The notes under the pieces were generated by a model, which was given only the letters and a program-made list of their open reading frames with translations, did no database searches and was not told the origin of the DNA. DNA of 64,000 bases from Cyclospora cayetanensis (Eukaryota; Apicomplexa; Conoidasida; Eucoccidiorida; Eimeriidae), in NCBI RefSeq assembly GCF_002999335.1, contig NW_020312062.1, positions 60,400 to 124,399 on the forward strand, given 5' to 3'. Position numbers and translations under genes: made by a program. Below are positions 1 through 50,027 of the stretch, piece after piece. Positions within the stretch are counted from its first letter, which is position 1. The number at the start of each line of letters is the position of its first letter.

Positions 1-544
1 GAACGAAGACATTCAGTTTGGGGCTAGATACTAGACAAAAGCTGAATGGCAAGCACACGAGCACATGCTGTGAGTGCCCTTTGGCAGCTTCTCCCTTAAA
101 TTTAAGAACAAAGCATCTTTATACCTTTTCTACGTGGACGAATTACAGGCCAATGTTGAGGCTATGATCGCGTGATCTTCGATAATCTAACCCAGTCGTA
201 CAAACAGATTCTGACATACCACCATCTGCGGGCGTGCCTAGTTGTCACCTCAAGTGATTGGCGGTGCTGGTGGAGGAGTGCTGCAGTTGGCAGTCACAAG
301 GAAGCAACATTTGCCTGGTATTGCCTGCTCAATTCTTTTCAACGCTCATTTCATGACATACTTAGGGCTAAGTGGCATGGCCACTGCTGGCAGAAGTGGA
401 TGCTGGGTTTCGGACCCCTTGCTCTGGCTGAGGCGTTCGACATTGGCAAGAGCGATGAGTGTATTATTATATCACCTAGTCTAACTCGTTTCAAAGGAGG
501 ACTTTTCTTTCTGGAGGCGCCATATAAGGACAGTCTTTTCTGTT

Positions 545-1834: not shown

Positions 1835-2404
1835 TATGTTCTGTGCACAAATTTCGAACTTTCATCAGCAGAAGACATAGGAAAGGGTAGGTGATGAACA
1901 TCAGCGACAAGCGGCACCGCTGCATCAGTAGTGGACAAGGCAGAAAGAAAGGTCCCACACAATACAAGTAGCAGCTGCTACTACGAGTGATAACTACAAA
2001 CTTCTGACAAACTAGTGAGGAACCATTTATGCCAGTATGGGAAACTGGACCCTCACGCTGAGTGAAACCCGTTTTGTAAATCCTTTGCTACATACGAGGC
2101 CCACGTGTCCTGGCATTGTCTGTAACATGAGTGCAGAGTTATATCGCTGCAGCAGTAACTCTACTAGGTGGTCCGTGCAGGATAGCATCGAAACCGATCG
2201 TAACTAGTCAAGTGCATCTATATGGAACACGCTTGGCATGTAAAGCCTCCAATCCCTATGTTTGCTACAAACGCTGCCATGCTGTCGCAAACTCGCCGTG
2301 CAGCTCCAAAGAAACTGGCCGCCGTTGCAGCTATATACCCCCGTACCCACAGGTACTCCCTCAACGTAAAGCAGGGCATCATCCCTCAAGTCGTTTGGGT
2401 AGCA
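1835..2404. other. Convergent intergenic region
   Basis: This lies between the stop of the + strand gene and the 3' end of tRNase Z. It probably holds both 3' UTRs. I see no convincing coding exon, RNA gene or repeat. The short open frames here lack splice support. Confidence 0.4.
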
Positions 2405-5400
2405 TTAGGAGCAGCTGGTGGATTCGACCTCTGAGGAAGCACCACTGAAAGGCCGTCCCACGCTGCTGTCACTAGTAAGCGGGAAGGCATCGGGGCATCG
2501 GCGCCTTGCAGCTGCTGCTCTATCTCGTAGGCGCGCCTGCGAGATCAATTGCGCACCAAGTAGATACCCCATTTCCATCACAAATAAATTCCGATTCCCC
2601 GACGGATAGAGGCAGGGCACGTGTATCGTAAAAATATAGCAATCTAGGCTGCAGCGAGCATATTTACTGTGCATGGCTACCCACCTGGCTTCGTTTTCAA
2701 CGCACTCCATAGTCAACACGCTTCGTAAGGCAGGATCCCCACGGTAGCGCTGGGAAAAGTGCGTCAGTAGCAAACGAGATGCACCCACACGGGCAGCGAA
2801 GCTGCGGAAGCACGCAAGATTCTATAAGCCACACGACGTCTGCCGGGTATTGAAGTGTCACCAATAAAGACACCATGCCCTCGACTCTTAGCTTTATAAT
2901 GATGTATAGCCGTATTTTCAGAGCCTTTCAACCTGTGACCGGTAAATGGCTTGGAAACTGGCCCATGGTTATCCCGGCCTCTTCACATTCAGACAAAGAA
3001 GTATCATGCAAAGCCCGAAAGGGAACCTTGTTTAGCCCACAACGCAAACAGCGATAACTGAAGCATTTGGGGTTTCGCACCTGCCAGCCATAGCAGCAGA
3101 GGAATGGCCTCGCTCGAAAGCAGCTTCACTCGCTGTCTTCACCTGCCGACCCATAAGGTCTGTGGTGCTGCGCGAGTCCTGTTCCCCGTAGCCACAGGCC
3201 GGAACGGCTTCTTGCGCTGAGCTAGGTTGAACCATAGGTAACAACGGATCTAAAAACGTCTCTGATTTGCTCGAAGTTCCCTTGGTACCACTCATTGTGG
3301 CTTCGTGCACCTGCAGCACCACTAGCATAAGCAGCAGCAAGCGCATGTAGTCCCAACACAAAGCCTCTCAGTGGCCACTCGCGATCCCCAATATACCCTC
3401 AAGCGGCCGGATGGGGGCCTCCACACCTGGTGTTTTTGTTCGCGGGTGTAAACTTTTTTCAGACCACAACCTATGCCTAGTGCTCACCACGATATCGGCA
3501 CCCTGTGCAAAGGGCAACAACCGTGAGGGGTCGCAGGTGTCAAAGGCGAAGCAGATCTTCCGGGGGTGAGCGGCATGCAAGAATATGTCTTTCGAGCCCA
3601 CGAGTGTTCCATCGGGAAAACTGAACGTCTCGTCATTTTTCAATTCCGACAGAAGCTGCAGCAGAGAACAATGTAGGAGAACGCAGAATAGTGCTGCTGT
3701 TGAAGACGGCCTTTCTGTTGCGTCTCCGCACCTGCTTCCACCCCATGCGACAGCGCGCTGACCGAAACCATGTTACGCATGCAGTCAAGATTCCTAATTG
3801 GTACAACTTGGTGCATGGTACAAGCAAAGCTCGGAAGCGCCTGCCCCTACATGTGCCCCGTAAAGGGGTAAAGATGTAAGGGTGACTTGTGAAGGTTATT
3901 ACCTTGTACACGGCCTTGGGCTCGCCTCGCAGCTGCGGCCACTCCTTTGTATCCGCAAGTCGCTGAGCATTCTTGGCAATAAGGGGATCCAGTAGTTCAG
4001 CTCTAAGTCGAGGCCTGCCCCCCTTTTCCGCCAAGACGTACCCGACGCATGGCACCAGATGCTGAGCACAGCGTGGCAGTGCATTGCACCGGCGTCCACA
4101 CACAGGGATGCAAACCCGAAGTCCCAGGCAGAACCTCTTTTAAACCTCCGGACCTGTTACATTAGCCACTGCGCTTTATCTGATAAGCTGTCGTCAAAAA
4201 GTGAGGAGTGTTTAGGCGCTGCCCCTGTAGCTTAATTGGCCCATATTGCCCATCACGCCGAGAAGGGGTAGCCTGGCATGTTTGTAGTCTAGTTGAGATT
4301 GCAAGGTTATACGCCTACCCTTATTGGTGCCGCTGTAACAACGATTCCCGCATCCTCGAAAACCGTGTAGCTCCCGTCCGCGTTCGGCTCAATATCGGCT
4401 CTCCCAGAAACCTCCGAGGGAGCCCTAAACAAACGAAACCACAGCACGACAGTATATTGCAAGGGCAGCACCTGGCATAGCTGGTCCTGCTGTTGTATCG
4501 TGCCACCCAAGCGCTTATATGCACGGTGCACCTATGGAATTCTCGCGGCCGCGCCACATTATATCAACTTGCCCTTAGCACCCTGTCCTGTAACATGGTG
4601 CCACCCACAAGGCACGCTCCCCTAACAACCTCAGCTAGTTTATTGCTCCTTTGTGCTACAGCTATCGCCATGAGGCAGGCATCGACACTGAAGCAAGCAC
4701 CATTATTCACAAGTAGTATACACCTAAGTGTTTGGGATCGTTTGCCAAAGAGCTTCCACTGAAGCTCACAGGGGCAGCGTGGGGAGGCGCAGGAGCCGCG
4801 ATCGCCTATGGTGCAGATGCGGAATGCCCCGCAACTCCACGACGGAGAAGGAAGGTAGCCGACGTGCACTTGTTCCCTGCGGACATGCGCATAAATCGGT
4901 TCCCTTAGCGTGCTAGTCACCGAGCCTTCGTGGCAAAGTGCGAAGCGTTGAAATCACTTGCAGTTGCGATGTCGCCGCACGACGCCTGCTGCGCGAGAAG
5001 CAACAGCATCCACTCCAGCTCAACAAGCTTCGAGAGGTGCAAGCCCTGAGACATCGGACCAAAGCACTACATCCCATACTCCCTCCTCAAGAGCCACTTA
5101 CGTGGAGGATGCAGCGAAGGAGGCTGCGAATGCCTTCGGGTCCCACGATCTCAATATGTCTGGGTCCTCTGCAAGGGGGTCAAGCGTAATACAGAAGGGG
5201 CAAACGCAGCACGCAAGGCTTCTGTAACGACCTTTGCCGCTGGCGGCGCTGTTTCCGTCCAAAAGCTGCACTAGGAAGTGTATAGCCACAACCCGGGTGG
5301 AACGCAGCGCATGCAGGGATTTTCGGAGTAATTTACGGTAAACTGCAAGCGTACTCCTCGGGGTCCTGAGCGATTTGGGAGAGAAAGGCGGGAAGACCAA

Positions 5401-28334: not shown

Positions 28335-31300
28335 ATGAAGAGCTCGCTGCTCATGCTTTCTGACCAAATGGCGGAAGCCGGGGGTTCCTTATTGCACGCG
28401 CGCACTTCTGGAAGCAGCAGAAATGCAGCCTTCGGAAGCCCTGGTGTCGTACCAGCGTCGTTTATCGTGCCGCTTCTGGAGCAGGGGGAGTCTCCCGAGC
28501 AGCAGCAGCAGCAACGGCAGCACCCTGTCACCATCGCTCTCGGCAGCAGCAGTGTCTCGAGGAGCGCGCCAAAGGGAAGGCCTTCCCCTGTGACTCAGAC
28601 ATCCAGCACAGACGGCGGAGGCACCCAAGGGGGTCCTTCGGGGGTTACCTCTAAGGCAAGGGCGTATTCCATGTACATCAATTGCACGACATGGGCAAGC
28701 GATAGCCACGGGCTGTTTGACTACGAGTCGAGGAACGTCGCCAAGAAGACATATAGGATCAGTTGCATGCGTGAGTATGCGGAACCTGTCTGGCGATGTT
28801 TCTGCGGGCGTTGCAGCTCTTGCCCTAGGGGAAGGGGGAAAATCTTTGGGCTTTCATGGATCGGATTGGATTAGATTGGGTTGGCATGTGCAGGGAGGGG
28901 TTGGGGGGTTCGGGGGATGCTCGGGAGGAACAGCCACGTGCTGCAACCGTAACGGAGACTTTGCTGCGGTTCTGCCACTGTCTCTGACTGTGCTGAGGCA
29001 GCTTCTGCAGTTGCTTCTGCGCGTGGGCTGACCTCTATTATTGCCCTCTCTACCGCTACTTCAGGGGGTCTAGGCTCCTACGAGGGTTTGCGCTTCCTCT
29101 CCTCTTTGCATGCGGTGTCTGAGGTGCAGTGTCTTTATGTGCACTGTCTGACGGGCAGTGTCTTTATGTGCACTGTCTGACGTGCAGGCCGCCCCCGCTC
29201 TTCATGCCTTTTACGTTTATAGCACTTTTTCGCCGCCTTTGGGCAGTCTTGCGTGGCGTGTTGGCTTGCTGACTCTATGGAGTCTGTGCAGTGTGTGTGT
29301 GCGGGCGTGTGTCGCTGCCCACGTGGTCTCCTTTTCGTCGCCGTTCGTGCATATTTTTGGTGTCGTAGGGGGGAGGAGGGGGGCATGCCTTCCGGTTGCC
29401 TGAAGTCAGCGACTAGAGGAATCTGCACGTCTGATGGCGCCGTCTCTGACTCTCAGGCCTCTCCCCCGTTGTCTCCATGCTGCTGCTTGTGGGGTGTGTT
29501 GCGTTTTTCGGGCATAGGGGACGCATACTGCTGCATGCGCGTCGGCAGCGAGGTATCGGTTTGTGCGGATGAGGAGGCTGCCGAACTGCTGCAGAGCAAC
29601 AGACATCACGACGGCTTGGAAGCGAGGGCTCTCCTGAGGATCGCTTGGATAGACGGTGCCTACTGCGTCTTGCCCCCTCCAGCCGTCAGTTCTCCCGCTG
29701 CAGCGACTGCGAGTGCTGCTGTTGGCACGTCGGATGCCGCTACCCCTGTACCGAGACAGCAGCAAGAGCACCAAGATCAGCATCTTGTGCAGTCTCCCGA
29801 CGGGGGCTTGCGAGATGCTTCCGTCGCTGACATTTACGCAGACAACGCAGGAGCAACGGCTACAGCGGCTGCGAGGCACCTAGAACGCGAGCAGCAGGAC
29901 GGAGCAGCAACAGAAGGAGCAGAAGGAGCAGGAGCAGGAGGAGCAGAAGGAGCAGGAGCAGGAGGAGCAGAGGCAGAAGGAGCAGGAGGAGCAGCAGAAG
30001 GAGGAGCAAGAGGAGCAGCAGAAGGAGGAGCAGAGGCAGCAGCAGCAGGAGCAGGAGCAGCCACACTCCCTGCAGGAAATACAGTTCCAGAAACCGATAC
30101 ACCACGAGACACTGCAACACCCCAAGGCGTCAACGCCCCTCTCCCTGCAGCAGCAGCAGCGTCTCTAGGAATTCCAGCTCCTGCAAGTGCTCCTTCTCCT
30201 GCTCCCGCGGGTGCTCCTGCTGCTCCTGCTGCTCCTGCTAGTGCTCCTGCTGCACCCCCCCCAGCGTCAGCAGCAAGAGCATCGCTACCAGCAGCAAGAG
30301 GTGCTGTGTCGAGGGGAGGAGGCTTGAGTGCTCAGCCCGAGGTGAGACCTTCACTGTTCGCCATGGCTTCGCCAGCTCACGCTACAGCAGCAGACGCTGC
30401 GAAGCTTGGCAGTACGCTTCGGAAGGGAGCGAGCCTATTGCTGCGTCTATCCAATGTGCATGGGGGGTGAACGTGTGGATACGTTGCTGCAGTCCGATAA
30501 GGTGTGGCTGGTGGTTCGGAGTCTACGAGACTGCGGGGGAGTCCGTCTCTCAGAGGGTGACGTTCTGAAGCTGGGGAGATTCAGACTCAAGGTGAAGGAG
30601 GCCGTTCTTAACCAGCAGCAGGCACTCTTAGCAACTGCCAGGTATACCTGCACACGCCCATATTACACGCAGCTGCATCCAACGCACCCACACAGCCAGC
30701 CATGGGTTTGTAAGGCAACACAGATCTTAACGGGCTTTTCTTCAGCTGGCCCCACACGGGCGTCCGTTGGTATACCGGTGTACAAATGCAGAATGCGGAA
30801 TAAGCCTGAATACGTATGTTTTTCTAGTGGAAAGTCCGTCTGTAGGTAAAAGTCGAGGAGGGTTTGGGGGGAGTTGTTTTTTCTGGTTGGTGTTGGTGGA
30901 TGCTTGTGCTGCATCTCATGCGCTTCATACTGCTGAGACATGCGTTGTGCATTTGCTGCACTTTATTCGCTGCTGCCTGTCCGATTGCAGGCAGCGTCCT
31001 CACCTGGGGGATGCGGATGACTGCGAGACGGTTGCTCCTGAGCCTGAGAGTGCAGCTGTGGCAGCAGCAGCGGTAGACATGGGCTTTGAATTTGGAGAGG
31101 GGGGAGTCTCTCAGGAGGAGGCTGTGGCGATGGGGGCAGCGGAGGAGGACGGTGCAGCGGCGGCGGCGGCGGCAGCAGCAGCAGCAGCAGAAGGAGCAGC
31201 AGCAGCAGCAGCAGCCCTTGCTGCAGTTGCTGCCTCAGGGCCTTGTGCCACTCCTCCCCCTCAAGAAGAACAGCAGTCAGTCTACGCGGCAATGCCCAGC

Positions 31301-34300
31301 AGAGACGCCTTCGGCTCTTCCCCCGTTGCGACACAAGCAGCAGCAGCAGCAGCAGCAGCTGCTGCTGCTGCTGCTGCTGCTGCTGCACTCCCCCCGGGGT
31401 CGCCGCTAAGGGCAGTTGCTGCAGCAGCTGCAGCAGCAGGCAGCCGAGCAGCCCTGGCAGGGCCTCTTTCGCGATGCGTTTCTGAAGGCTGTCTCCTCAC
31501 GCCGAAGGGATCGGGTGCAGGGGCGGAGCTCTTCTATGAGGGGGGTGAATCAGCTAGTCATTCGTTTGATGGTGAGCCAGCCTTCCACGACCACCAGCAC
31601 CGCTGGCTGCCGCAAGTTTGTTTTGGAAAAGGCAAAAACGGTCGTTCGGAGGCTGGACCGTTGCAGTTTTGCGACTCGTTTTTTCTTGGGTTGGTATGCG
31701 GCAATGTGCTTTGGGGGGTTTTGTCATCTGCTGCTTGGGACCTTTTTTCTTTCTCTCTCTTCGCGCATTGCAATACTGCCACAACACCTGTGTGTGTGTG
31801 TATGTATGTGCGGGCTGGTTTTTGCGGTAGGCGCTGCTTCGATGAGTATTCGCCCTCTCAGCGCTGCTGATGCACGAGCGAGCAGAAGGTTAGGCAGAAC
31901 CCTACAGCTCAAACTCCAGCAAGCGCATCGCGCCACTATCAGCACTTCAAAAGGCTTTTTGTGCTGGCCTTTGCGCTGCTGCTGCTACTGCTCCTGTAAT
32001 TGTTGTAATTGTTGGTGTTGTTGTTTTCCTTTTGCTCGCTGCAGTTGGTGTTTGGGAGGCGGGGTAAGGCTGATGGAACGGGCAGGGGGGTGTTATATAT
32101 ATATATATATAATTTTTTTAAAAAAATAGTGCATGCCTGGCCGCTTTGGCGACCCGACGTTCCCCCGTCCCCCACGGCTGTGCATGCGCCTCTTCCTCAT
32201 GCGCGTCGCTGGAAGTGCTGCTTTCGCCCGTTGATTCTCTCGTGTATGGGGGGTTCTGAAACGCATGCGCCTTGTTAATGCGGCTGCAGCAGTCTCTTCT
32301 CGCGTCCCGCTTGCCGCATTTGCCTCTGCGAAGCCGCTGAGGATGAGGATCCTGACGCCAACCCTCTCGTAGCTCCTTGCCGATGCAAAGGTGGGCAGTC
32401 AAATCGCGTATCAATATATGCATATAGATATTTAACTGCTGATGCCTATTTATGATTTAATTTTGACACACTAGGCACTTGCGCCGGCCCCGCGGGGGGC
32501 GGTGGACCTCCTCGTAGGCTGTGCTAAATTGGAAGTCGGAATAAGTGGCATACTCCGATGCCCTTATTGATGTAGGCGGGTGTCGTATCATGTACTGCAG
32601 ACGGAGAGCTTCATGGTCGTAGGCATGGCCGATAGCATCTCAAACCGTTCTCCCCGCTAGTCAGAGACGTGGCCAGAGCGTTGGGGGTAGAGCATGTGCT
32701 GCTGGCTGCGGCTGCTGCTGCTGCTGTCTCTCTTTCTCCACAGGAAGTATGCAGTTCGTGCATCTGCAGTGTCTTCGTACCTGGATGGAGGGCCGCCTCA
32801 ATATTCGCAATGTAAGCTGCCTGTTGAGGCGCCTCGAAAGGTGCTTTGTTGCAGGCTGGCGCAGCTTCGGGGAAAGGGGGGCTTACTGGTAGGCCATCGA
32901 CGTATAAAGTAGTGGGGCACAAGAGTCAGAGATCGTGCCTTGTTGTGGTATGAGCCGTTGCTGCATTCTTCTTCAGGATGGCTCGACAGTCGGCTACTTC
33001 CTGCGCTCTTTGGACTGTGAGGCAGCCGCCTGAAGCTGAGCTATCTAGCCATGCTAATAATAGCTGTTGGATTCTGTTGCGTTCGCTCCTGCTGCTGCTG
33101 AGACGTTCCCCCTAGGCTAGTGGTGGTAGTGTGATGGTGGTGCTCTTTGCCGGTGTAGGTGAGCTCTGCAAGGCACCCTATCCCTCTCTTGTGGAAGCCA
33201 ACAGGAAGGTGATCGAACTTTTCGCAATACCAAGACCCCAGTACCCCTACTTCATTCTTGGTAAGTCTTTTCCTTCACCGCGCGTGCTGTGGTGTTGTGC
33301 GGCAGGTAGGCCTATATGTATGTGTATATGCTGTTGGGAGTGTTCATGGATGTTTAGTTGGGGGATGTTTCTCTGGCTAGACGCTGGTGCACTGTGGAAG
33401 GCTACGCGACTAGCGACTAGACAACGCGTAGAGGGAAGGGTTGGCTGCTGGGCAATTGGCGAAAAGGAAAGGACGGGGAGAGGGGCGGGGGGAAGGGGGG
33501 AGTACGTATGTCACCACTGCGCCTTTTAGCGACGATGCGGGTTGTGTTATCGCAAAAGCGTTCGGCTTCAAACCACTTTTGCATGCAATTTTTGGTTGAA
33601 CACAAAGGGTTGTCATTGGCAGTGCATGGTTTTGTGCCATCTCCTCACGAGTTTGTCCGTTGAGCACTTTTTGCATGCAGCTTTTTGTTGAAGGCGTGGG
33701 CTAGTCATCGGCAGTGCATGGTTTTGTGCCATCTCCTCACGAGTTTGTCCGTTGAGCACTTTTTGCATGCAGCTTTTTGTTGAAGGCGTGGGCTAGTCAT
33801 CGGCAGTGCATGTTGTTTTTGCCCTCTCTTGACGAGTTTGTCCGTTGAACACTTTTTGCATGCAGTTTTTTGTTGAAAGCGTGGGCTTGTTATCGGCAGT
33901 GCATGTTTTTGTGTCCTCTCTTCACGAGTTTCTCCGTTGAGCACTTTTTGCATGCAGTTTTTTGGTGTGTTTTGGGGCGGCTTTTTCAGAGCCTCGCACA
34001 ACGCAGCCGGCGCCTGCAGGTGCGACTGCCCGTGTCAGAGGCCTTCATGTCGTGTCTCTGTCGAACCGACGTGTTGCTCGGCTGGGGAGAGGGCACGACT
34101 CTGACGTTCGCCTCAGCGACATCTCTGTTTCCAGATTTCACGCCATCATCAGGCACCAGCAGGTAGCGTTCAAAGGAGCGGGTTAAGGGTTTAGGGTAGG
34201 AATGCTGCTTCTTGTGTGGCGATCTTTTGAGGCAGAGGCAGCACTGCTGCTCGCTCACAGACGTATTCGCAGAAACTGCTCTGTCGTAATGCGCGTGTAT

Positions 34301-35095
34301 AGGGGGCGTTTTTCCTGGAGGACCAAAGAAGCAAGTTCGGAACCTTAGTGGAGTTGAAGAGGCCCCTTAAACTCGAGAGATGGATTAGCGGGGTTTCCTT
34401 CCAAGTAGGCAGTAGACAGGCGCCCTTCACCTGCCGTTTGGCCTTTCTGTGCTTTTAATTGTCAGTGGCCAAGTGTCGTATTACTCCGCCTTCTCAGCGC
34501 ATGCATCTCCTAAACACAGCTCAAGCACGCTCTCCACCCGGTTGTGCCCTTCTGTCTGCGCCCGCTGTCTGCTTCCCACACTCTTAAACGACCCTGTTGC
34601 TCTAGCTCTGTGCTCCTCTCGGTTGGGTTGGCACTGTGTTGCACGAAGCGGATCACCATCTCTATCTTTCTCTTTCTTGCCCTTCTCTCTCACTATATAT
34701 TTAAATAGATAGATATATAGATATATGTAGATATACATACGACGCACGCAGCCCCTGCTCCTGTCTTGAGAAAGGAAGGGGGTGTACTGAGAGTGTCTTT
34801 CTGGGGTCCCCTGTTGGATCACCCCGTGGCAATTGCGAGACAAATCTTTCCATGGCTGGTACGGCCTTATCGTGTGTGTGTGTGCGTGTGAGTGTGGCTT
34901 ACACATCTCTTTAAGCGGGTTCTCGCACCTGTTACATTGTGTGTGCCTGTTCGACTGTTTGTATGTCTTAAGGTTGGTCGTACTGTCATTTCGATTTCAA
35001 TTCGCCGCCAATGGAGGATCTTGCCTGCCTGCTTGCGCTCTCAACGGAGTCTTGACTCTGGTACCCTTTACGTGACTGCGAGGAGCTGCCTGTAG
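28335..35095 (+). CDS. RING-CH (RINGv) plus FHA domain protein, predicted E3 ubiquitin ligase
   Basis: This is predicted to pair a membrane-type RING-CH ubiquitin ligase module with a phosphothreonine-binding FHA domain. Exon 1 (28335–28770) joins 29518 in phase. A long exon with Gly/Ala/Glu repeats ends in VRLSEGDVLKLGRFRLKV at about 30590. Exon 3 starts at 30991 and is alanine-rich. RING-CH: CRICLCE through APCRCK (32312–32390), MQFVHLQCLRTWM (32744–32811), a 40-nt exon (32977–33016), then CELCKAPYP (from 33159), giving the C4HC3 ligand order. FHA: LGRGHDSDVRLSDISVSRFH (33990–34162), FFLEDQRSKFGTLVEL (34303–34404), then VGRTVISISI (34973–35095, stop). All these junctions keep phase. The frame breaks once, in six G's at 30462–30467. 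The exons between 31.5 and 32.3 kb are unclear. The domain order suggests ubiquitination steered by phosphorylated partners; that is inference. Confidence 0.85.
29126..29183. repeat. 29-bp direct repeat, two copies, intronic
   Basis: GCAGTGTCTTTATGTGCACT with its following bases is repeated at 29126 and 29155, inside the first intron of the RING-CH/FHA gene. The copies are nearly identical. Confidence 0.9.
29897..30062. repeat. GGAGCA-rich coding minisatellite
   Basis: A purine-rich array of GGAGCA, GAAGGAGCA and related units encodes Gly/Ala/Glu-rich residues in the RING-CH/FHA protein. Read on the other strand it gives false leucine-rich frames. Confidence 0.85.
31336..31381. repeat. 46-bp CAG/CTG palindrome in an alanine run
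   Basis: A (GCA)n tract turns directly into (GCT)n, making a perfect inverted repeat centred on AGCT at 31357–31360. Both halves encode alanine in the RING-CH/FHA frame. The CTG side runs a few bases further (to 31386). Confidence 0.9.
32093..32112. repeat. TA microsatellite
   Basis: Short (TA)n followed by a T/A-rich stretch, in an intron of the RING-CH/FHA gene. Confidence 0.85.
33573..33962. repeat. About 92-bp tandem repeat, roughly four copies, intronic
   Basis: The motif GGCAGTGCATG recurs at 33618, 33710, 33802 and 33895, giving periods of 92, 92 and 93. Each unit also carries ACTTTTTGCATGCA (shortened by a T in the first) and CGAGTTTGTCCGTTGA-type sequence. Copies two and three are nearly identical; the outer ones have diverged. 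The array fills much of the intron between the RING-CH and FHA exons. Confidence 0.93.
34692..34740. repeat. ATAG/ATATAG-rich microsatellite
   Basis: Degenerate TATA/GATA units in the last intron of the RING-CH/FHA gene. Confidence 0.8.
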
Positions 35096-35103
35096 AGCCG
35101 CAA

Positions 35104-35772
35104 ATGCGGCAGCAGAGCGCAGCAGCAGCAGCACAAGCCGTGACAAATACGGGGGTAGCACGCGGTGGGAGAGGCCGTAGCGGGAGGTCGTCTTCTCTTT
35201 TTGGCCTCAGGCTAGGATTTGTGCTTCCCTTCGCATTCAGTCGCATGCATGTGATGTTTGCGTCTGCGTGCTGGTTTCTTGCCTTTTCCGCAGACGTTCG
35301 ATTTATTGACTCCGTTGGTCCCCAGGGTGTATCGAGCTCCCTGGCAGCCTTCAACTGGCATTCGCTGATAGGGGGGGGTACAGCAGGGGCCCCCTCAGGA
35401 AGTTCGCGTATCTCTGCCCTTGTGCACCGGCAGACTGCTGCAACTCCCAGAGGCCAGCATGCACCGGCAGCGCTTGGCGGCGCTGCTGCGGAGGCTCAAA
35501 GTGGGGTTGGCGGGGAGGCAGGCGAAGACGATCAACAGCAGCAGCAGCAACAAGCGCATTCCGAGAGGGCCTCTGGACAGCAGGGAGAGGATTCTTTTGA
35601 AAGGATGCCGAATCCGCAGTTCAACAGCAGCGACGCTCCAGCAGCCAGCGTGCAGCAGCCGTCGTTGCGGCAGCAGATTCATCAGTTGCAGCAGCGTGGA
35701 GCCTTGAGAGCCTCGCAGGCTAGTCCAAGGGTCAGTCGATCTCCCGCAGCAGTGATGAGGGCACTTGACTGA
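35104..35772 (+). CDS. Gln/Ala/Ser-rich open frame, possible alternative 3' exon
   Basis: This frame starts just after the RING-CH/FHA stop at 35095. From an acceptor-like TTTTCCGCAG at about 35292 it reads VRFIDSVGPQG, then a Gln-rich, Ala/Ser-rich disordered tail (QQQQQQQ near 35540) to a stop at 35770–35772. It could be an alternative or true last exon of the RING-CH/FHA gene, but I found no strong donor in matching phase. A separate small gene is also possible. The FHA fold already looks complete without it. Confidence 0.35.
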   Translation: MRQQSAAAAAQAVTNTGVARGGRGRSGRSSSLFGLRLGFVLPFAFSRMHVMFASACWFLAFSADVRFIDSVGPQGVSSSLAAFNWHSLIGGGTAGAPSGSSRISALVHRQTAATPRGQHAPAALGGAAAEAQSGVGGEAGEDDQQQQQQQAHSERASGQQGEDSFERMPNPQFNSSDAPAASVQQPSLRQQIHQLQQRGALRASQASPRVSRSPAAVMRALD

Positions 35773-36902
35773 GACAGCGGGCTGCGCTCATGACTCCCTC
35801 AGCAGGAGTCACCATTTTATTTCGCTTTAGGGCATATCGATCGAATGTAGCAACACTATAGAGAAGGCCTCCCCGCTTCCTCCCTATGCGGCAGACGCCC
35901 TCTAGGGTATGTCCATTCCGTAGAGAAGGGGAGCTTCGTAATCGAAAGCCTCTTAAGGGCTGCGTTAGGGCCCCTTAGAGGCTAGAGGGGTGCCCTGTAG
36001 GGCCCCTTCCCAGCTTCCGACAGAGTAGAGTGGATTTTGTAGATAACAAGTTCGGGGGCACTCTCAACATGACAGGCTGCAGAGGACGCCATTTGTGTGC
36101 GTGGTGTGTGTGCTCCGATGAGTGGTGGGGACGCCTTCTAGAGACGACCACTTGCGTTGGAACGTGCTCTTGCCCCTGCCAGTGCAGTCTGTGCTTGCAA
36201 CGGAATTGCCCTCATATAGTTAGTACGCAGGTGCCCCATCGGGCGTTTTCGGGGTGCACCTGTTTCTACGATTTTATTCGCCGCGTCTATCTTCGGCCGG
36301 AGGGCTGATGTGGGGTCTGCCGCGTTTTCATTTGGATATGTCCAGAATGGAGAGTAGACGGCCGCCTCCTCGCCCCCCTCGGAGGCATGCATGATTAACT
36401 CGCATCCTTGCAAAAGGCTTTAAGCAAACGCTTGCATGTATACGGTACCTCCGCGCGCGGAAGTGATTGGTGCTACGCAGCAACTCCTCAAGGACCGTAT
36501 TAGGTGTGTGGGGGAGGGGGATTTTAGTTAGGTGTTGGGGGGCGAGGGGGATTCTAGTTAGGTGTTGGGGGGGCGAGGGGGATTTTATTTAGTGTTGGGG
36601 GGCGAGGGGGATTTCATTTAGTGTTGGGGGGAGGGGGAGTCGGCAGGCGCGGCGGTTAAAATGCCTGCTTGCTTGCGTTCCTACAGTCTCCCCTCCGCCC
36701 TTTGTTTGTTGTGGCCATTGAAAAGCCAAACTCAAGAGTCTGTGCGCCTGCATGCGGCCCCAAAGAAATTTTACTGTCGTTCGCGTGTGAGCTATGGGCA
36801 GAAGGGTGTGGGAGCTACGCTGTGCCTTGAAAGGCAACGAGGGGGTCAAAAAGAAGCAGCAGCTCCCGCTTGCTCCAGTCGCTGTAGAGTGCGCAGTCCT
36901 CC
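35773..36902. other. Convergent intergenic region
   Basis: Between two genes that end towards each other. It is rich in GGGCCCCTT-type motifs (35940–36010) and holds a G-rich minisatellite near 36510–36640. No exon is supported. Confidence 0.4.
36511..36640. repeat. 30-bp G-rich minisatellite, four copies
   Basis: Units of GAGGGGGATTTTAGTTAGGT type followed by GTTGGGG recur at 36521, 36551, 36582 and 36611, with a period of 29–31 bp. Each unit has several runs of four or more G's on the + strand. It lies downstream of the 3' end of the − strand gene at 36903. Confidence 0.9.
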
Positions 36903-37606
36903 TTACGGGGGTACTTGTGAAGCTGCTCCCTTCAGCAGCGCTACTGCTGCTTCTGCCGCCTTCCGTATCTGGGGATGCCTGGCAGAATTGCCCTTCCTGG
37001 GGACCTGCGAGGTGTATGCCCAAATGCCGCACAGCAGCAACTGCATGCGCTGCAAGTGCTGCTGCTCCAAATCGCCGTTAGTGGCCTCTAGGATGTACAG
37101 GGATGCAGCGTGCAAGAGCAGAGAGGCAAGAGTGAACTGGCGTAAGGCCCCCCCCTGACGCTGCACATTCGGCGATGCCTCCATAGGCACCTGATGCCGT
37201 GAATCTTGCTGCTTAGGATGCTGCAGCGGGCAGCAAAAGGGGCAGCTCTGCAGATTAAACGGCGGAGGAGGGAACCTCAGCACCCGCTTAAGCGTCTGTA
37301 TCGAACTCTGCTGGAAGGAACCTCCGGCAAGGGCGCTTTCTAACTGCTGCAAACCCTCCTGCGGCAGTAGCAGCTGCAGCAAAGGCTGCATGCAAAATTC
37401 CTCAAAGAGCTTCGCCGCTGCGCGCCTGCTGCTGTCGCTGCTTCTCATGGTGCAGTCCTCGTTACAGTTCACAGGAGAAACAACAACACGCGTAAAGAGG
37501 AGGGCGCAACAAACCAGCAGCAACAGGGAAGGGGGAGACAAAGGATCTCCCTTCTCTCCTTGCTGGGATTCCTGCACAAAGAGAACCTCCCAAGGCCTGT
37601 CGCAAA

Positions 37607-37656
<50 letters not shown>

Positions 37657-40600
37657 GCGTACACCTGGAGTTCAAGTAAAAAGACTCCCCGCATCAGGTT
37701 AAGCGCGCTCGCTTCGTCTCCCTTCCTACAACAGGCAGCAGCAAGAGACAGACAGGGGTGATTCGCAGCCTTCCGGAGTAGGCTCAGAGCTTCCTCAATG
37801 TCTCCTCCCCTGCCACAAGCGAACGCGTCTGCTGCTGCTGGTGTTACTGGTGCGGCTGCTTCTTCTTCTGCCGTCGCGTCCAAAGGCGATGGAAGGGACG
37901 CTATCTGCAGCAAAGCCATTGTAGCGAAGAGACAGCGACTGCCTCGTGTATGCTGCTGCTTGCGGTCCTGCTGCGTGTTGTGCAGCAGCTCTTCGCGCGT
38001 CTGCTGCCGCTGTTGCCGCTGCAGATCTGCAGCAGCCAGACACACTGAGGGTGATAAGCCCGCAAGAGTTTGTGTTACTGTCTGCGTTTGTTGCAGCCGT
38101 TCATACTGCGGCTGCTGCGTCAGTTGCTGCTGCCTCAGGTACGTCTTGAGTTGAGGACGGGCACACCTCAAGACTCGCAAGCCTGCTGCTGCTCCCCTGT
38201 TCGCTGCAGACGCAGCAGGGGGCAGTGAAGCGCAGCAACAGCAACAACATCCAGGATTGCAGAGAAGGCTGTGAATCGTGGGATTTCCAGGAAGTGGTGT
38301 TTTTTTTGTTCCCAAGGCGTCCTCTAGGGGACCGCTGCGCGCAGTGGTCAGCTCTTCTGGGAGACACGGGGGGAGACTGCTGCCTGATAAATTCTCCTTA
38401 GAGCCGATCTGATCGAGGCTGCTGTAACTGCAGGGGTTCTCCTGCTGCGGCGTATCCAGGATCTGCTTCCCAGCGTCTCGCAACAGCGCCGTCTCGAAGG
38501 GGCCTCCAGTCTTAGTCGCGAGCGGAGCAAAGACTGCGCCTCCTGCTGCTTTCTCTGGAGGGATATGTTGCGCTGCAGACTCTGGAAAGGAAGTTGCGGG
38601 GAGGTCATGCGAGGTGTCTGCTACTGCGCCTCCTTCTGGAGTTTCTAGGGGGAATTCTCGCGGCTTGCTTGGAGGCAGGGGGAGGGCCCCTTCCGGTTCT
38701 CCGCTCCCCCGCGGCTGGGGTGGGCGACTTTCTGCTATCGCGGCAGCTGCTTCCGATTCAAGACAAGGCATTGCTTTGAAAGGCGCCTTTTCGCTGCATC
38801 CCCAAGGGCTCTCGCTGGGAGAACTGCGCTCCGCTTCCGAGGCTTTAGGCCCCTCCTTCGCCGTTGCTGCTGTGCTCGCAGTCGCCGCTGCTGCAGCGGC
38901 TGCTGCCGAGCATTCGGGAGTGCGCGCCTCCATTTGCGCCTTTTTTTCACCTGCTTCAGGCCCCCCAAGAGGTCTCTGCTGCAGCCTCCTGTCTCCCTGC
39001 GCAGGAGGAGAGCTTCCTGCAGCTGCAGAAACAGGCGGCAAGCCCGCTCCTGGCTCCCCTGTTGGTGATGCTGCAGACTCTTCTTCGCATCTCTCCTGTT
39101 CCCCAGCGGCAGAAAGGCCTTCCACCCCACTCGCCGGGCTAGGAGGCGCTTGTGTTTCCAAGTCTTCCGACTCCATTCGTGTCTGCTCCGAGCTGCTGCT
39201 GACTGTGCTGTTGTTGGCTGTTGCCATTGCGGCAGCAGGAGAGGCCTCCCCGCCTGCGGCTGCAAGGCTGGGCAAGGCTTCTTCCGGAGTCTCGCGAGGC
39301 GCAGCAGCAGACGCAGCAGCTGCTCCTGCAGAGGAGTCTGTGGCTGCCTCTGCCTCTGCCTCCGACGCTGCCGCTCTTGCTGCTGCCTTGCTCTGAGGCT
39401 GTGCTTCCGCAAGGCTGTGGTCCTTCAAGACTTCCCCGCGCAGAGCCTCCGCTGCTGTGTTTTCTTCGGCGGGAGCAGCCGCATCTGGAAGCCTTGCTCT
39501 TGTCACCGCTGCTGCTTGCCCGCTTGCAGCACCAGGCATCGCTGCTGCTGCTGCCCCTGAAGCTCTTGGAGGCTGGACGCCTCTTGGGGGCGAATCGTTC
39601 AATCGTCTGCGACGGAGGGAGAGCAGCTGGCGCGTCTCGCAAGGAGGCAGCCGTTTGAGAGCGGCACACCCCGATCCTGCTCCCCAGGATCGAACTGCTG
39701 CAGTTCTTGCTGAGGGAAGATTCGCACGTCCTCGCGAAGACGCTGCTGGAGCAATAGCCAGACTTGCACCAGCTGTTGTTGTTGGCGAGGATAGTGGTGC
39801 GGAATCTAGCGTTGGAAGATGGGAGGCTGAGCGGCTCCTTCTTCGGAGTGGCAGCCAGGGGGCTCTCGCAAAGCCTCTTCTCACTCCTGCTGCTGTTTCC
39901 GTCACTGCATACTGCTGAGGAAGCGCCGCAGCGGGCAGGTTGGGGGTAGACACTGACCTCCGGAGGCGAGGATAGGCTGTCGCTCTTGCTGCTGCTGCTG
40001 CTGCCGCTGCAGCCACTTCCGCAGTCGATATTTTTGTCGGCGTAGGCAGCAACTCGCTTCTGGAGGCTTGAGATACCCCACCAGGTGCTCTATCCGCTTG
40101 GTGCTGCTGCAGTTTCTTCTGCATGTTCTGACGGCTGTGCAGCATTGGGAAGGGGGTTCTCCTCACCGCTGCAGACTCTCCTCTCGCTGTGCGTTCTGCT
40201 GCTTGTGGCAGCCTTCCGAGGAGCTGCCGATTGCTTGACGACGCGAAGGAAGAAGCAGATCTTCCAGCCGCGGCGTCTGACGCACAGGCTGCACGTGCAC
40301 GGAAGCCTCTCCGAGAGACCTCCTGGGCGGGAGAGGCTCTGAGCAGATTCTCTTCAGCGGCTGCGGCGAGTGCATGCGCAGCGCTGGAAGCTGTTTCCTC
40401 CGGTGTGTCTCGAGAAACAAGCAATTCAGGCGCAAGAGGACTGACCTCCCGATGAGCAGCTGCTGCCGTCAGCGAGGCTAGTCGTTCTACAGATGATGGC
40501 GTTGGATGCAGCAGAAGGAGGTTTGCTGAGGGTGGCCTTCTGTGCGGCGAGGCATTCTCTTCTTCAGAGACAAAGCCTCCAAAAGCAGGTGTCTGCAAAC

Positions 40601-41675
40601 ATGAAGGCAGGGATACTCCTTTATCCCCCCCAGGAGAAGACAGTACTGGCTCCTGTTGTCGTTGCTGTTGTTGCTGCAAAGCCTCCTGCTGTTGCTGCAA
40701 AGCCTCCTCCTGCTCCTCCTGTTGCTGCAAAGCCTCCTGCTGCTCCTCCTGTTGCTGCAAAGCCTCCTGCTGCTCCTCCTGTTGCTGCAAAGCCTCCTGC
40801 TGCTCCTCCTGTTGCTGCAAAGCCTCCTCCTGCTGCTGCTGGCATGCGTCGCGCAGCAACCGCTCCCGCGGGTGCGTTCCTGGAGCAGCTACTGACTGCG
40901 CCTGTGTCTTGACAGGGGCAGTGTCTCCCGTTTCCACTGCCGCCGCTTGGGAAGAGGAAGGGGCACTGTAGGGACTGCTGCAGCTGAGGGGAGAGAACGG
41001 ACTTCGATAATCAGAAGGCGACGAAGGTAAAAACTCTAAGGGCTGAGTGTCGCACAGAATTTCCCTCTGCATCCCTGGCCTTGCCTCTGCCAAATTCTCC
41101 GCTGCCTCGCGCAGGGATGTCGCTGGATGAGCAGCTACGGGAGGGGGAGTTGCTGCTGCGTAGCTGCTGGGAGGCCTAGGCGTACCAGCATCAGCGATGC
41201 TCCTGAAGAAGGCGCGAGCAGCTGATAGGGAAAAGGAGGAGTCTCTTGGCCGCTTATGAGAGAGAGAGGCTGCACTCCGGGTTAGCCTGAGAGCAGCTTC
41301 CTGTGGAGGAAGACTCCTCGCCAGTGGCGTGCGAGACAGAAGACGGCCCCCACAGAAGCTGCCTTGTTGAGGATTCTCCCAAGGAGTCTGGTGCACTCTG
41401 CTTGGGGTGGGCGTTCCTGCCGTTCTGTCTGCTACGGAGGTGGGCGCAAAGCCCTCTCCTGGAGAGGAGGCCATCCTGAGCGCTCCAGCCGTTGCCGGTG
41501 CAGCCGCAGCTGTTTTTGGACTCCAAAGAGAGGCGTTCAGAGCATAGGCTGCAGCTGCAACGGCAGCACGGCGCCAGCCGCATTGCCAGCACGTGCAGCA
41601 GGGTGGGGTTGTTGTTGTGTTGGGCGGAAGAAAAGATAAATTCGAGCGAGCGTGGCAGGTAGCTAGGCCCCACAT
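36903..41675 (-). CDS. Very large Ala/Gln/Pro-rich protein with homopolymer runs, function unknown
   Basis: A single open frame of about 1,590 codons. The first ATG is 41673–41675; the start of MASSPGEGF at 41474 looks at least as good. I recognise no catalytic domain. The N-terminal third is Ser/Pro-rich. It contains a decapeptide array of the type QEALQQQEEQ (40667–40845), which should form a coiled coil. The middle is Ala/Ser/Glu-rich and looks disordered. Then come a short Cys run (CCCCCCA), RLQQTQTVTQTLAG and a 15-Gln run (37608–37656). The last 250 residues are less biased (LLQLLLPQEGLQQLESALAGG, LRFPPPPFNLQSCPFC, LASLLLHAASLYILEA) and may fold as helices. The repeat content is typical of Eimeria proteins. 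It is convergent with the RING-CH/FHA gene. Confidence 0.65.
37608..37656. repeat. CTG/CAG trinucleotide run (poly-Gln)
   Basis: Uninterrupted CTG on the + strand, read as CAG (Gln) in the − strand protein at 36903–41675. Confidence 0.95.
40667..40845. repeat. 30-bp coding tandem repeat (QEALQQQEEQ)
   Basis: GTTGCTGCAAAGCCTCCTGC with CTCCTCCT-type endings repeats about five times, mostly at 30 bp. On the − strand it encodes the heptad-like units EEALQQQ/EEQQEALQQQ. All three + strand frames also lack stops here, giving false frames rich in Leu. Confidence 0.92.
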
Positions 41676-42209
41676 ATACAAGCATCCATCCCCCTTAAAA
41701 CAAAGGTAGGAAATAATTCGGCTTAATGAAGGCTGTCAAGGGGCCCTGGAGGCCACCCCAGGGTTCTGCGCGCTGCTGGTGCTGAGGCGTTCCTGCGGCA
41801 GGAGAGGGGCCCCCTGTTGCGGAGAGGAGTAGTAGGGAGCGCAAAATGGATTTCTGGTTCGATTGGCTCTTTATTTTTTGCGGGATCCACATGTGCTTTG
41901 CGGTCTCTGAATTCCTGGAGTGATTCACGACACTTGAGAGGGGCCCCTTCAAATAGCAGCTGCCCTTCCCACACGGGAGCCTTGTCAGTCTCGTAGTGTG
42001 TCTGTCCATCTGATGGGCTATCTATCTCTCTTGTTGAGTTTAGTTTATTCTTTGGTTTTTGTGTATCCACTGGTCTTCACCATCAGAGTGCCCGCCGTCG
42101 CCCTCCTGGTTGCCTGCAGCCGCCTTGTCGGCTGTGCAGGGGGCAGTTGTTGATACGAAGAGCGCAAGGAGCTCTTCTTGGTGATATTCCTCTTCGATTG
42201 AGTCTTTCT
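41676..42209. other. Divergent intergenic region
   Basis: Between the − strand giant gene and the + strand coiled-coil gene. Both promoters should be here. The − strand frames at 41695–42070 have no splice support. Confidence 0.4.
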
Positions 42210-47590: not shown

Positions 47591-50027
47591 TTATGGGCTG
47601 CCCGCCGTACACACACTGAGGGTTTGCACCTCTGCTGCGTTCGCATCAGAGGCCTGCCCTGCTTGGGCATCCGCTTTTTTGGAAGGGCCCGCCACTACTA
47701 AAAGATCCTCGGGGCTCTTAGAAAATCCGTCTTCCCGCGCTTCCCTCTTTGCTGCGTCAATCCAGCCTTCGGAAATGCCCGGCTGTACGGGGGTGCCTTC
47801 GACGGAGGCCCCCAGGAATAGGGGCTGCACGCCCCAGTAGAGTTGCAGCTTCCGTGCAACACGCGGGTCGTCTGCCGCGGCAACAATGGGGGCTCTAGGC
47901 CTCAAAGAAGAGAGGATAGAGGCACTCTCACCCCCGTCACTCTTCGTTAGAATTGCGCTCGCACCAATCACCTGGCTCATGACATGGGCCCCCCTAGCCA
48001 CCGCTTCGTAGACCTTGGGCGACGCGTGAGACGGCCTGCTTCCCGGGCTGTCCTTGAGGCTTCCTTCCTCCTGGTGACTGCCGTAGGTAGCCGACTCCGA
48101 CAAAGATCCTCGGCGCAAACCCTCCCCTGCGAAGTGGTCTGCAGCAGCGGCTGCCGCAGCAAAGGCTCTTGCAGCTTCGGGGGACCTAAGGGTGTTATGA
48201 GTCCAGAGCCTCTCCTGCCGTTCTGTTTCGGTTAATATCAATCGCTGCATTCTCGCAATCTGAGCTCCCCTGTCACTGGCTGCGGTCTCTCCAGAGAGCA
48301 TTACAGCGTCTGCGCCGTCAAAGACAGCGGCAGCAATGTCGGTCGCTTCTGCTCTGCTAGGCTGCGGGTTCAACATCATGCTCTCCAGCATTTGTGTGGC
48401 CACAATGACAGGCACACGGGTTCTTCTCGCCGCTTCAATAATCTCCTTTTGTGCTCCTGGAACTTCACCGGGGTGCAACTCTAGGCCAAGGTCACCCCGC
48501 GCCACCATCAAACCGTCGGCTGCCGCTGCGATCTCCCCCAACCTTCTCAGTGCCTGTATTTTCTCAATCTTCGCAATCAGCGCAGGACAGTGCGAGCCAT
48601 GGGGGGGCCCCCACATTGGGGGTGGACCTATGGGGGCCTCCGAGGGCACCCCCATAGCCCTCCAGGATGAGGGATCCCCCTGAACTTGAGCTTCATGGGC
48701 GGTCCGCAATAAGGTGCGGAGTTGATAGATGTCGGCAGCAGTTTGGACAAAGGAGAGCGCAATAAAGTCAACACCCCACGAGGAGACCATCGCTGCAATC
48801 GCTTTATCTTTCTTGGTGAGAGCCGAAATAGCGAGGGTAGAGTCCGGAAGAGACACCCCCTTCTTACTTGATATAGGGCCGCCTATTTCGACAATGCAAC
48901 GAACCCATAAATTTTCTCCCTTCTCCTCTTTCGACTCATCATAGTCCTGTTCTGCCTGCTGCATTAGCGCGCGCGAGAGCTCAACAACCCTCAGATTAAT
49001 CTTGCCATCATCCAGTAGCACGCGATGTCCAACCCGGAGGGCCTTCAGCACCTCTTGTTGCTGAAGCGGAGCTCTAAAGAGGCCCCCTCGGGCTGCCCCC
49101 GGAGAGTCTCCGGCATCCAGAAAAATTTGCTGCCCTCGTTGCAGCGATTGCTGATCCGGATCGAGGATACCTAGTCGAAGCTTCGGTCCAGGAAGATCTG
49201 CAAGAACGGCGATTGGCTTGCCGTGCTTCAGCTCAAGCTCCTTGATGTAGCAATACTGCTGGTACTTTTCAGTGTAGAGGCCATGAGAGAAGTTCAGGCG
49301 GAACACATCAACACCATTAAGGTATAGCTGCTCAATCTAAGCCACACACCACAAAGCAGCTGGCTGCAAACACACTGCCTACAGACGAGGTGCCTGCAAC
49401 GATGGCTGAAAATCAACACCCATTGTGCGTTGTCTGGTAAAACTCGTCTGCACACAGTGACTCTGTACTGCGTGTACACCCCATTTAAAGCTCGTAGTAA
49501 CGGTAGAATCACAAGGACGGCGGGAAACTAGGGTTTTTTGTGTGCCCTACCTGCTCTTTTTCCCATGAGGCCGGCCCGATCGTAGCCACCTGCTTTGTCC
49601 TAGTGAACTGTCTCCTCAACAGCACACTTTCGGATGCCGCTGCTGCAGCAGCGGCTGGTGCTACTGCATGCGGGGCTCTCGCTGCAGCAGCAAGGCCGCA
49701 TGCCCCCCGAAAACACAAAAACGAGGATGCAGAGTCTCCCTTGAGAAAGGCCCCAGGGATCCCCCCTCCCCGGGGTTGTACAGCCCCTAGGAATAGAGAG
49801 GGGAAGCTTTTTCTTCCAGCCATGTTTGCAGATGCCTCTATCCGCCGTCGTTGCTGCTGCTGTCGCGCGGAAGGAGCAAGCCTCAGAGAAGAAAGAAGAT
49901 GAGGGCCCCCCAAGATGCAAAAGGACGGGGGAACAGGCACCCTACGGATGGATTCCACGGCAATAATACGGAAAAAGCAGTAGATACTCACTAAACAAAG
50001 GCAGTTCCGGAACCCCCACAGACTCAT
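47591..50027 (-). CDS. PyKII: Pyruvate kinase II (organellar, predicted apicoplast)
   Basis: Pyruvate kinase converts phosphoenolpyruvate and ADP to pyruvate and ATP. There are two exons. Exon 1 (49551–50027) ends KQVATIGPASWEKEQ with a GTAGGG donor. Exon 2 (47591–49336) starts IEQLYLNGVDVFRLNFSHG; the junction is phase 0 and restores the family's N-terminal motif. Family hallmarks follow: ADLPGPKLRLG, VDFIALSFVQ, ALIAKIEK (the catalytic Lys), MVARGDLGLEL, VIVATQMLESM and DAVMLSGETA. The model is about 740 residues, longer than cytosolic enzymes. It starts MSLWGFRNCLCLVSIYCFF, a hydrophobic leader, and continues with a Ser/Arg/Ala-rich stretch of about 110 residues. In Toxoplasma the second pyruvate kinase is organellar, including the apicoplast, which fits. 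The C-terminal domain carries an acidic/Ser insert (about 47990–48200). Confidence 0.93.

What the first reader, a model, noticed from the sequence alone, without database searches (positions are those of the whole stretch)
28335..35095. RING-CH ubiquitin-ligase module joined to an FHA phosphopeptide-binding domain
Seen: a full C4HC3 RING-CH ligand set (CRICLCE, APCRCK, HLQCLRTW, CELCKAPYP) spread over four phase-matched exons, followed by FHA signatures (LGRGHDSDVRLSDISVSRFH, FFLEDQRSKFGTL, VGRTVISI) over three more. Known: RING-CH domains are E3 ligases, and FHA domains bind phosphothreonine. Inferred: a ligase that chooses targets by their phosphorylation. I see no flanking transmembrane pair, which many RING-CH (MARCH) ligases have, so this may be a soluble regulator. 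This is the best candidate in the window for an under-described system.
Basis: partly seen in the sequence, partly recalled or inferred. Interest (0 to 1): 0.75.

Follow-up and report, generated by a model that had tools for sequence, protein, structure and literature searches.

The report
Coccidian RING-CH plus FHA ligase gene
This parasite gene encodes a probable ubiquitin ligase that also carries a phosphothreonine-reader domain; it belongs to an old protein family shared by malaria parasites, Toxoplasma, dinoflagellates and ciliates, for which no functional study turned up.

Summary
Four phase-matched exons give a complete C4HC3 RING-CH domain and three more an FHA domain (Pfam RINGv 50.2 bits, FHA 46.7 bits). 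The gene is larger than stated: about 12 exons, 28335-35774, roughly 1,045 codons, with one junction (31571 to 32293) not fixed. Orthologues in Besnoitia (71% identity over the core), Toxoplasma, Plasmodium, Vitrella and Cardiosporidium keep the whole order on one chain; transcriptome-derived members hold both domains. So it is one gene of an alveolate-wide family that databases already name: a new member of a known kind. I found no functional study. Best reading: a soluble RING-CH E3 whose FHA selects a threonine-phosphorylated target or partner; neither step is shown. New details: a conserved N-terminal beta domain ending in an FHA-type hairpin (possibly a second, degenerate FHA); Phe in place of the usual FHA loop Asn in 121 of 121 aligned rows; a conserved acidic C-E-T(-V-A-P-E) motif in the variable linker of the window's branch; an ancient paralogue in the same genome. 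The boldest open reading, a phospho-switched ligase with an internal threonine ligand, is untested.

The parts
28335..28770 (+). exon 1: start codon, low-complexity N terminus, then conserved MYINCTTWASDSHGLFDYESRNVAKKTYRI (first strands of the N-terminal beta domain); a second possible start lies at the conserved MYINC
   Evidence: ORF and GT donor; exon 1-2 stretch 49% and 51% identical to P0002 and P0001 over 86 residues
29518..30341 (+). exon 2: continues the N-terminal beta domain (to LLRIAWIDGAYCVL), then a Q/A/G-rich variable linker
   Evidence: AG acceptor, GT donor, phase-matched; matches P0121, P0002, P0001
30493..30641 (+). exon 3: SDKVWLVVRSLRDCGGVRLSEGDVLKLGRFRLKVKEAV, the last strands of the N-terminal domain, an FHA-type terminal hairpin
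   Evidence: splice sites and phase; lies in a stretch 70% identical to P0121 over 70 residues (exon 3 and start of exon 4); raises the Pfam FHA score when placed behind the FHA body
30991..31571 (+). exon 4: acidic and poly-Ala linker; 3' end uncertain
   Evidence: AG acceptor in phase; end at 31571 is out of phase with the next exon
31016..31042 (+). D-D-C-E-T-V-A-P-E motif in the linker (Thr codon 31028-31030)
   Evidence: ET-x-AP in 19 of 120 listed relatives, 18 of them among the 26 relatives of the window's branch; sequence checked
32293..32390 (+). RING-CH exon a: CRICLC to APCRCK (zinc ligands 1-4)
32744..32811 (+). RING-CH exon b: HLQCLRTW (ligands 5-6 and the Trp)
32977..33016 (+). 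RING-CH exon c: ends inside the Cys codon of ligand 7
33159..33260 (+). RING-CH exon d: ELCKAPYP (ligand 8), then the segment leading to the FHA domain
33990..34162 (+). FHA exon a: LGRGHDSDVRLSDISVSRFHAII
   Evidence: open stretch around it scores 25.6 bits against FHA, cut-off 20.7
34303..34404 (+). FHA exon b: FFLEDQRSKFGTLVELKRPL
34973..35060 (+). FHA exon c: VGRTVISISIRRQW, last strands, then LPACLRSQRSLDS
35294..35774 (+). last exon: DVRFIDSVGPQG and a Q-rich, disordered-looking tail to the stop codon
   Evidence: phase-matched AG acceptor, open to TGA; the match to P0002 and P0013 runs on into it

Best explanation
One protein-coding gene of a coccidian apicomplexan (organism inferred from the relatives; the assembly is unnamed). 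It encodes a soluble RING-CH (C4HC3) ubiquitin ligase of an alveolate-wide family: N-terminal FHA-like beta domain, variable linker, RING-CH, then FHA. Most likely the RING-CH binds a charged E2, while the FHA pocket (Gly-Arg, Ser-Arg, His, with Lys-Phe-Gly in the last loop) binds a threonine-phosphorylated substrate or adaptor, so that a kinase decides when the target is ubiquitinated. Shown here: gene structure, domain identity, family membership and conservation of zinc ligands and most phosphate-pocket residues. Inferred: E3 activity, phosphothreonine binding, and the link between them.
For: Complete zinc-ligand set in 121 of 121 aligned rows, with the RING Ile (115) and Trp (116) mostly kept. 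RINGv and FHA above the curated cut-offs in the window protein and in 8 of 8 relatives scanned. FHA residues G135, R136, S150, R151 invariant in 121 of 121 and H153 in 120. RING-CH homology to solved RING-CH domains (2d8s, Doa10) and FHA homology to GarA, OdhI and other FHA chains. Same order on one protein in Besnoitia, Toxoplasma, Plasmodium, Vitrella and Cardiosporidium, and both domains on one chain in transcriptome-derived records such as P0006 and P0036. Hydropathy maximum 0.81 from the RING to the end. RING/FHA among the E3 architectures listed for P. falciparum (PMC2408969; the passage does not say which gene).
Against: No activity, binding or localisation data. The Asn of the usual NGT turn is Phe in all 121 rows, so the peptide-backbone contact of typical FHA domains is changed. 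No RNA evidence for this window itself. One exon junction does not fit. The absence of a membrane anchor rests on hydropathy only: 4 of 120 relatives have a stretch of 1.6 or more, and so have 5 stretches of the window's own poly-Ala linker before the RING.
Confidence: 0.62

Rival explanations
1. The FHA domain is a structural or dimerisation module that does not bind phosphothreonine; the RING-CH ubiquitinates targets chosen by the N-terminal domain or the tail.
For: NGT Asn replaced by Phe in 121 of 121. The structure model couples the N-terminal domain and the FHA closely: FHA chains align over model residues about 4 to 391 in 49 of the 50 rows listed.
Against: Arg, Ser, Arg and His of the phosphate pocket are invariant or nearly so (120-121 of 121) across apicomplexan, dinoflagellate and ciliate rows, which pure scaffolding would hardly demand. 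I recall, without a call, that the NBS1 FHA has Tyr in this place (SKYGT) and still binds phosphothreonine.
Confidence: 0.2
2. The protein is a phospho-reader whose RING-CH no longer works as an E3 (zinc-bound scaffold).
For: No activity report came up in the papers I could search (ten searches, listed in the report).
Against: All eight ligands invariant in 121 of 121; Ile and Trp positions, which in RING domains contact the E2 (recalled), are kept in 115 and 116 of 121.
Confidence: 0.12
3. Two neighbouring genes, one with RING-CH and one with FHA, wrongly joined.
For: The window has no transcript data, and some exons are short.
Against: Besnoitia carries both on one chain at 71% identity over 98% of the core; relatives from transcriptome collections (eukprot, mmetsp) do as well; the intron between the RING and FHA exons, 33261-33989, is in phase.
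Confidence: 0.02
4. A MARCH or Doa10 orthologue that lost its membrane helices and gained an FHA.
For: Best solved RING-CH matches are 2d8s ('cellular modulator of immune recognition', a MARCH protein by recall) and Doa10; Ponts et al. list PFI0470w against yeast SSM4, that is Doa10; one Symbiodinium member is named MARCHF7 in the database (P0037).
Against: The PDB matches to these cover only the RING-CH; no hydrophobic segment from the RING onwards; the N-terminal segment and FHA recur through the family. No tree of RING-CH domains across families was made.
Confidence: 0.04

Closest known systems
Alveolate RINGv-FHA proteins (Toxoplasma forkhead-associated domain-containing protein P0002, Besnoitia P0001, Plasmodium 'FHA domain protein, putative' P0013)
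   Same: Same domain order, same N-terminal signature, 47-71% identity over the RING-FHA part, same linker motif (ETVAP or ETAAP)
   Different: Window protein has its own poly-Ala/poly-Gln linkers; otherwise an orthologue
P. falciparum PFI0470w (named FHA domain protein with a RING finger, PMC2536677; in the E3 table of PMC2408969)
   Same: Probably the malaria orthologue: an FHA name, a RING, and placed beside the RING-CH protein SSM4 (inference)
   Different: Its sequence was not seen here; the 2008 table gives it no T. gondii homologue, whereas P0002 belongs to this family
CHFR / RNF8 / yeast Dma1-Dma2
   Same: FHA plus RING in one ligase; phosphothreonine-guided targeting (recalled)
   Different: There FHA is N-terminal and the RING is C3HC4 (recalled); here a C4HC3 RING-CH precedes the FHA, and an extra N-terminal domain is present. 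P. falciparum PFL1620w is listed against DMA1/DMA2 and would be the member of that kind
MARCH (RING-CH) ligases and Doa10/SSM4
   Same: C4HC3 RING-CH domain
   Different: No hydrophobic segment after the RING; substrate module is an FHA
GarA / OdhI
   Same: Nearest solved FHA sequences; known to be switched by an internal phosphothreonine (recalled)
   Different: Small bacterial regulators without a ligase domain; an internal ligand is only hypothesised here

Membership tests
RING-CH (RINGv) domain | C4HC3 zinc-ligand pattern and Pfam RINGv above cut-off | tested here: met
   50.2 bits, cut-off 21.6; eight ligands in 121 of 121 rows
RING-CH (RINGv) domain | ubiquitin ligase activity with an E2 | not testable with these tools
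   needs an assay
FHA domain | Pfam FHA above cut-off | tested here: met
   46.7 bits, cut-off 20.7
FHA domain | Gly-Arg, Ser and His of the phosphate pocket | tested here: met
   121, 121 and 120 of 121
FHA domain | Asn of the NGT turn | tested here: not met
   Phe in 121 of 121; aligned to Asn of GarA. Some accepted FHA domains also lack it (recalled)
FHA domain | phosphothreonine binding | not testable with these tools
   needs a peptide assay
Alveolate RINGv-FHA family | N-terminal W-x-x-D-S-H-x-L-F-D-Y segment, KLGR hairpin, RINGv, FHA with K-F-G | tested here: met
   all present in the window. In the 120 listed relatives my patterns find the N-terminal segment in 89, the hairpin in 83 and the RING in 118; partial records were not set apart. 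In the tree the window groups with the Toxoplasma branch (support 0.915)
MARCH ligases | transmembrane pair after the RING-CH (position recalled) | tested here: not met
   19-residue hydropathy maximum 0.81 from RING to protein end; before the RING only poly-Ala stretches of the linker reach 1.6-1.73; hydropathy only, no dedicated predictor
CHFR/RNF8/Dma ligases | FHA N-terminal to a C3HC4 RING (recalled) | tested here: not met
   canonical FHA lies after the RING, and the ligands are C4HC3
Tandem FHA protein (N-terminal domain as second FHA) | FHA fold in the N-terminal domain | tested here: inconclusive
   strand order like FHA, hairpin adds 7-12 bits to the FHA score, but no Pfam hit in the domain, hhalign probability 16% over 11 columns, Foldseek nothing at E 0.001 for the second model

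The most novel reading that the evidence does not exclude
The protein is a phospho-switched ligase built on two FHA-type folds that flank the RING-CH and exchange their last beta hairpins, so that both ends of the chain and the RING form one body. In the apicomplexan/chromerid branch the conserved linker threonine (acidic-C-E-T, mostly followed by V-A-P-E) is an internal ligand: when phosphorylated it occupies the FHA pocket and locks the ligase, much as GarA and OdhI are switched; dephosphorylation or a competing phospho-substrate frees it.
Probability: 0.1. Interest if true: 0.72.

Novelty: new member of a known kind. Interest (0 to 1): 0.4.

Why it matters
A ligase that reads phosphothreonine would connect kinase signalling to protein turnover in apicomplexans. 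The family is spread over apicomplexans, chromerids, dinoflagellates and ciliates, and my ten paper searches brought up no functional study of it. The invariant K-F-G loop and the conserved linker threonine give specific residues to test, and the ciliate relatives allow the test in a harmless laboratory organism.

Tried and rejected
Frame shift at 30467: first suspected; rejected once the 30342-30492 intron was found. No base was changed.

Gene end at 35095: rejected.

N-terminal domain as a recognisable FHA by sequence: Pfam finds nothing in it (8 relatives; the P0006 domain alone, E up to 10); hhalign between the N-terminal domain and the FHA gives 16% probability over 11 columns, above ten column-shuffled controls (0.2-3.4%) but not significant.

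Hairpin exchange by co-variation: mean-field coupling analysis of 163 of 218 proteins (the rest failed the anchor patterns or were too short before the hairpin), effective number 107. Control hairpins were mostly not recovered: the fraction of random blocks scoring as high was 0.33 and 0.53 for beta5-beta6 and 0.53 and 0.046 for beta10-beta11 (N-terminal domain, FHA). The key pairs were FHA beta1 with N-terminal beta11 0.027, FHA beta1 with its own beta11 0.49, N-terminal beta1 with its own beta11 0.84, N-terminal beta1 with FHA beta11 0.24; the beta7-beta10 pairs (0.086-0.27) do not tell the arrangements apart. With such controls the lean to exchange counts for nothing firm.

Identity of the Toxoplasma gene number: several FHA proteins appear in interaction or phosphosite lists (TGGT1_287980, TGGT1_202840, TGGT1_267600, TGME49_262780); none could be tied to this family, so nothing is claimed from them.

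RING/FHA in PMC2408969: the passage does not name the gene and could mean PFL1620w (listed against DMA1/DMA2), so it is not used as proof that this family was recognised.

Non-alveolate members: among the rows listed, those that name an organism are alveolates; the rest are unnamed metagenome or transcript records, and only the best 120 of 384 and of 1183 hits are listed, so absence elsewhere is not shown.
Full report
Observation. The window lies in a 43.2 Mb, 392-contig assembly without a name. Their splice sites are GT-AG and their phases agree: 32293-32390, 32744-32811, 32977-33016, 33159-33260 for the RING-CH and 33990-34162, 34303-34404, 34973-35060 for the FHA. The spliced core scores 50.2 bits against Pfam RINGv and 46.7 bits against FHA (cut-offs 21.6 and 20.7).

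Gene limits. Comparison with orthologues extends the gene in both directions. Upstream, exons 28335-28770, 29518-30341, 30493-30641 and 30991-31571 encode a conserved N-terminal domain and a variable linker; downstream, 35294-35774 encodes the tail. Exons 1-4 give 663 codons and exons 5-12 give 382 codons and a stop, both without internal stops. The exon 4 to exon 5 junction is one base out of phase as modelled and is left open. The intron 30342-30492 removes what looked like a frame change.

Family. A search with the core found 384 proteins at E 0.001 or better (120 listed). The best is Besnoitia besnoiti (71% identity over 98% of the 231-residue region, E 1.2e-103); others named are Toxoplasma, Neospora, Vitrella, Cardiosporidium, Plasmodium species, Hepatocystis, Platyproteum, gregarines, Chromera, Symbiodinium and Tetrahymena. 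A search from an unnamed metagenome member (P0116) gave 1183 hits at 1e-10 (120 listed), the named ones from Blepharisma, Stentor and Protocruzia adhaerens (the last by its taxid), all ciliates. No Eimeria or Cyclospora record is named among the rows listed.

Paralogue. The same genome holds a second member on contig C21, about 300-4600, with its own N-terminal segment, hairpin, RING-CH and FHA exons. In a FastTree, midpoint-rooted tree of 121 rows (window, C21 paralogue pieced from exons, 119 of 120 listed hits; P0112 dropped for want of a RING pattern match) the window groups with Toxoplasma, Neospora and Besnoitia (0.915), while C21 groups with gregarine, Chromera and unnamed proteins (0.994), beside a branch with Symbiodinium. 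The duplication thus looks older than the coccidia. Support for the whole branch that holds the window (27 rows) is low, 0.312.

Active-site conservation. On the same 121 rows all eight zinc ligands are invariant; RING Ile is kept in 115 and Trp in 116. In the FHA, Gly-Arg and Ser-Arg are invariant and the His is kept in 120. The last loop reads S/A-K-F-G-T/S: the Lys-Phe-Gly is invariant, so the Asn of the common NGT turn is replaced throughout. The alignment to GarA confirms the position. I recall, without a call, that NBS1 has SKYGT and binds phosphothreonine, so the change need not abolish binding.

Soluble protein. A 19-residue hydropathy scan of the whole model gives a maximum of 0.81 from the RING to the end; before the RING only five stretches of the poly-Ala linker reach 1.6 (maximum 1.73). 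Toxoplasma and Besnoitia reach at most 1.07 and 1.03, and 4 of 120 relatives reach 1.6. There is no sign of the MARCH membrane pair, by this proxy.

Linker motif. 34-40 residues after the KLGR hairpin, 18 of the 26 relatives in the window's branch carry E-T-x-A-P in an acidic setting (window: DDCETVAPEPE, 31016-31048). Of the other eight, P0029 has DTVAP, P0022 has CETDIP, P0096, P0101 and P0107 have CETRRS, and P0020 has CETED, so an E/D-T is there in 24 of 26; P0023, which has only 118 residues before the RING, and P0024 have no such site. These placements were made by eye. One listed protein outside the branch, P0105, has ETFAP. It is a candidate phosphosite or docking site; I saw no phosphorylation data for it.

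Literature. PMC2408969 (passages and section 9, parts 1 and 2 of 3 read) names RING/FHA among the P. falciparum E3 architectures without saying which gene, and its table places PFI0470w beside yeast SSM4 with no T. gondii homologue, and PFL1620w beside DMA1/DMA2. PMC2536677 (passages) names PFI0470w an FHA domain protein with a RING finger. Together these point to PFI0470w as the malaria member, by inference only. PFI0470w occurs in three papers of the library (of the third, PMC2821373, only the listing was seen). Other passages seen: PMC11321763, PMC9241511, PMC7018656, PMC8698288, PMC8409312; none of the passages describes this protein's function. Searches; most subscription papers are not held, so a functional study may exist outside the library.

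Verdict. A real, well-supported gene and an orthologue of a known but apparently unstudied family. The mechanism, a phosphothreonine-guided soluble E3, is the best explanation, with each functional step still to be shown.

Noticed in passing
G000 contig C21, about 300-4600 (locus L017): A second RING-CH/FHA gene of the same family, of the subfamily that includes gregarine, Chromera and, further off, dinoflagellate proteins.
   Followed up: partly
window 33577-33964: Tandem array of a 92-base unit, 4.2 copies, 90% matches, inside the intron between the RING-CH and FHA exons.
   Followed up: no
window 47594-49336, - strand: Pyruvate kinase (Pfam PK 241.9 bits and PK_C 66.4 bits), much of it in one open frame.
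   Followed up: no
window 36903-41735, - strand: Open frame of 1610 codons, rich in Ala and Gln runs, just downstream on the opposite strand; no Pfam match at E 0.01.
   Followed up: no
P0121 (Cystoisospora suis record): The deposited protein has the N-terminal domain and linker motif, but no RINGv or FHA domain is listed and its tail is low complexity, probably a truncated gene model.
   Followed up: partly
P0037 (Symbiodinium microadriaticum record): A member of this family is named MARCHF7 in the database, although it has an FHA domain and no hydrophobic stretch: probably a name copied from the RING-CH alone.
   Followed up: no
G000 contigs C385, C373, C336, C190, C12 (two), C70: Seven further FHA matches in the genome besides this gene and its paralogue (best 66.0 and 50.7 bits, on C385 and C373); not examined.
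   Followed up: no
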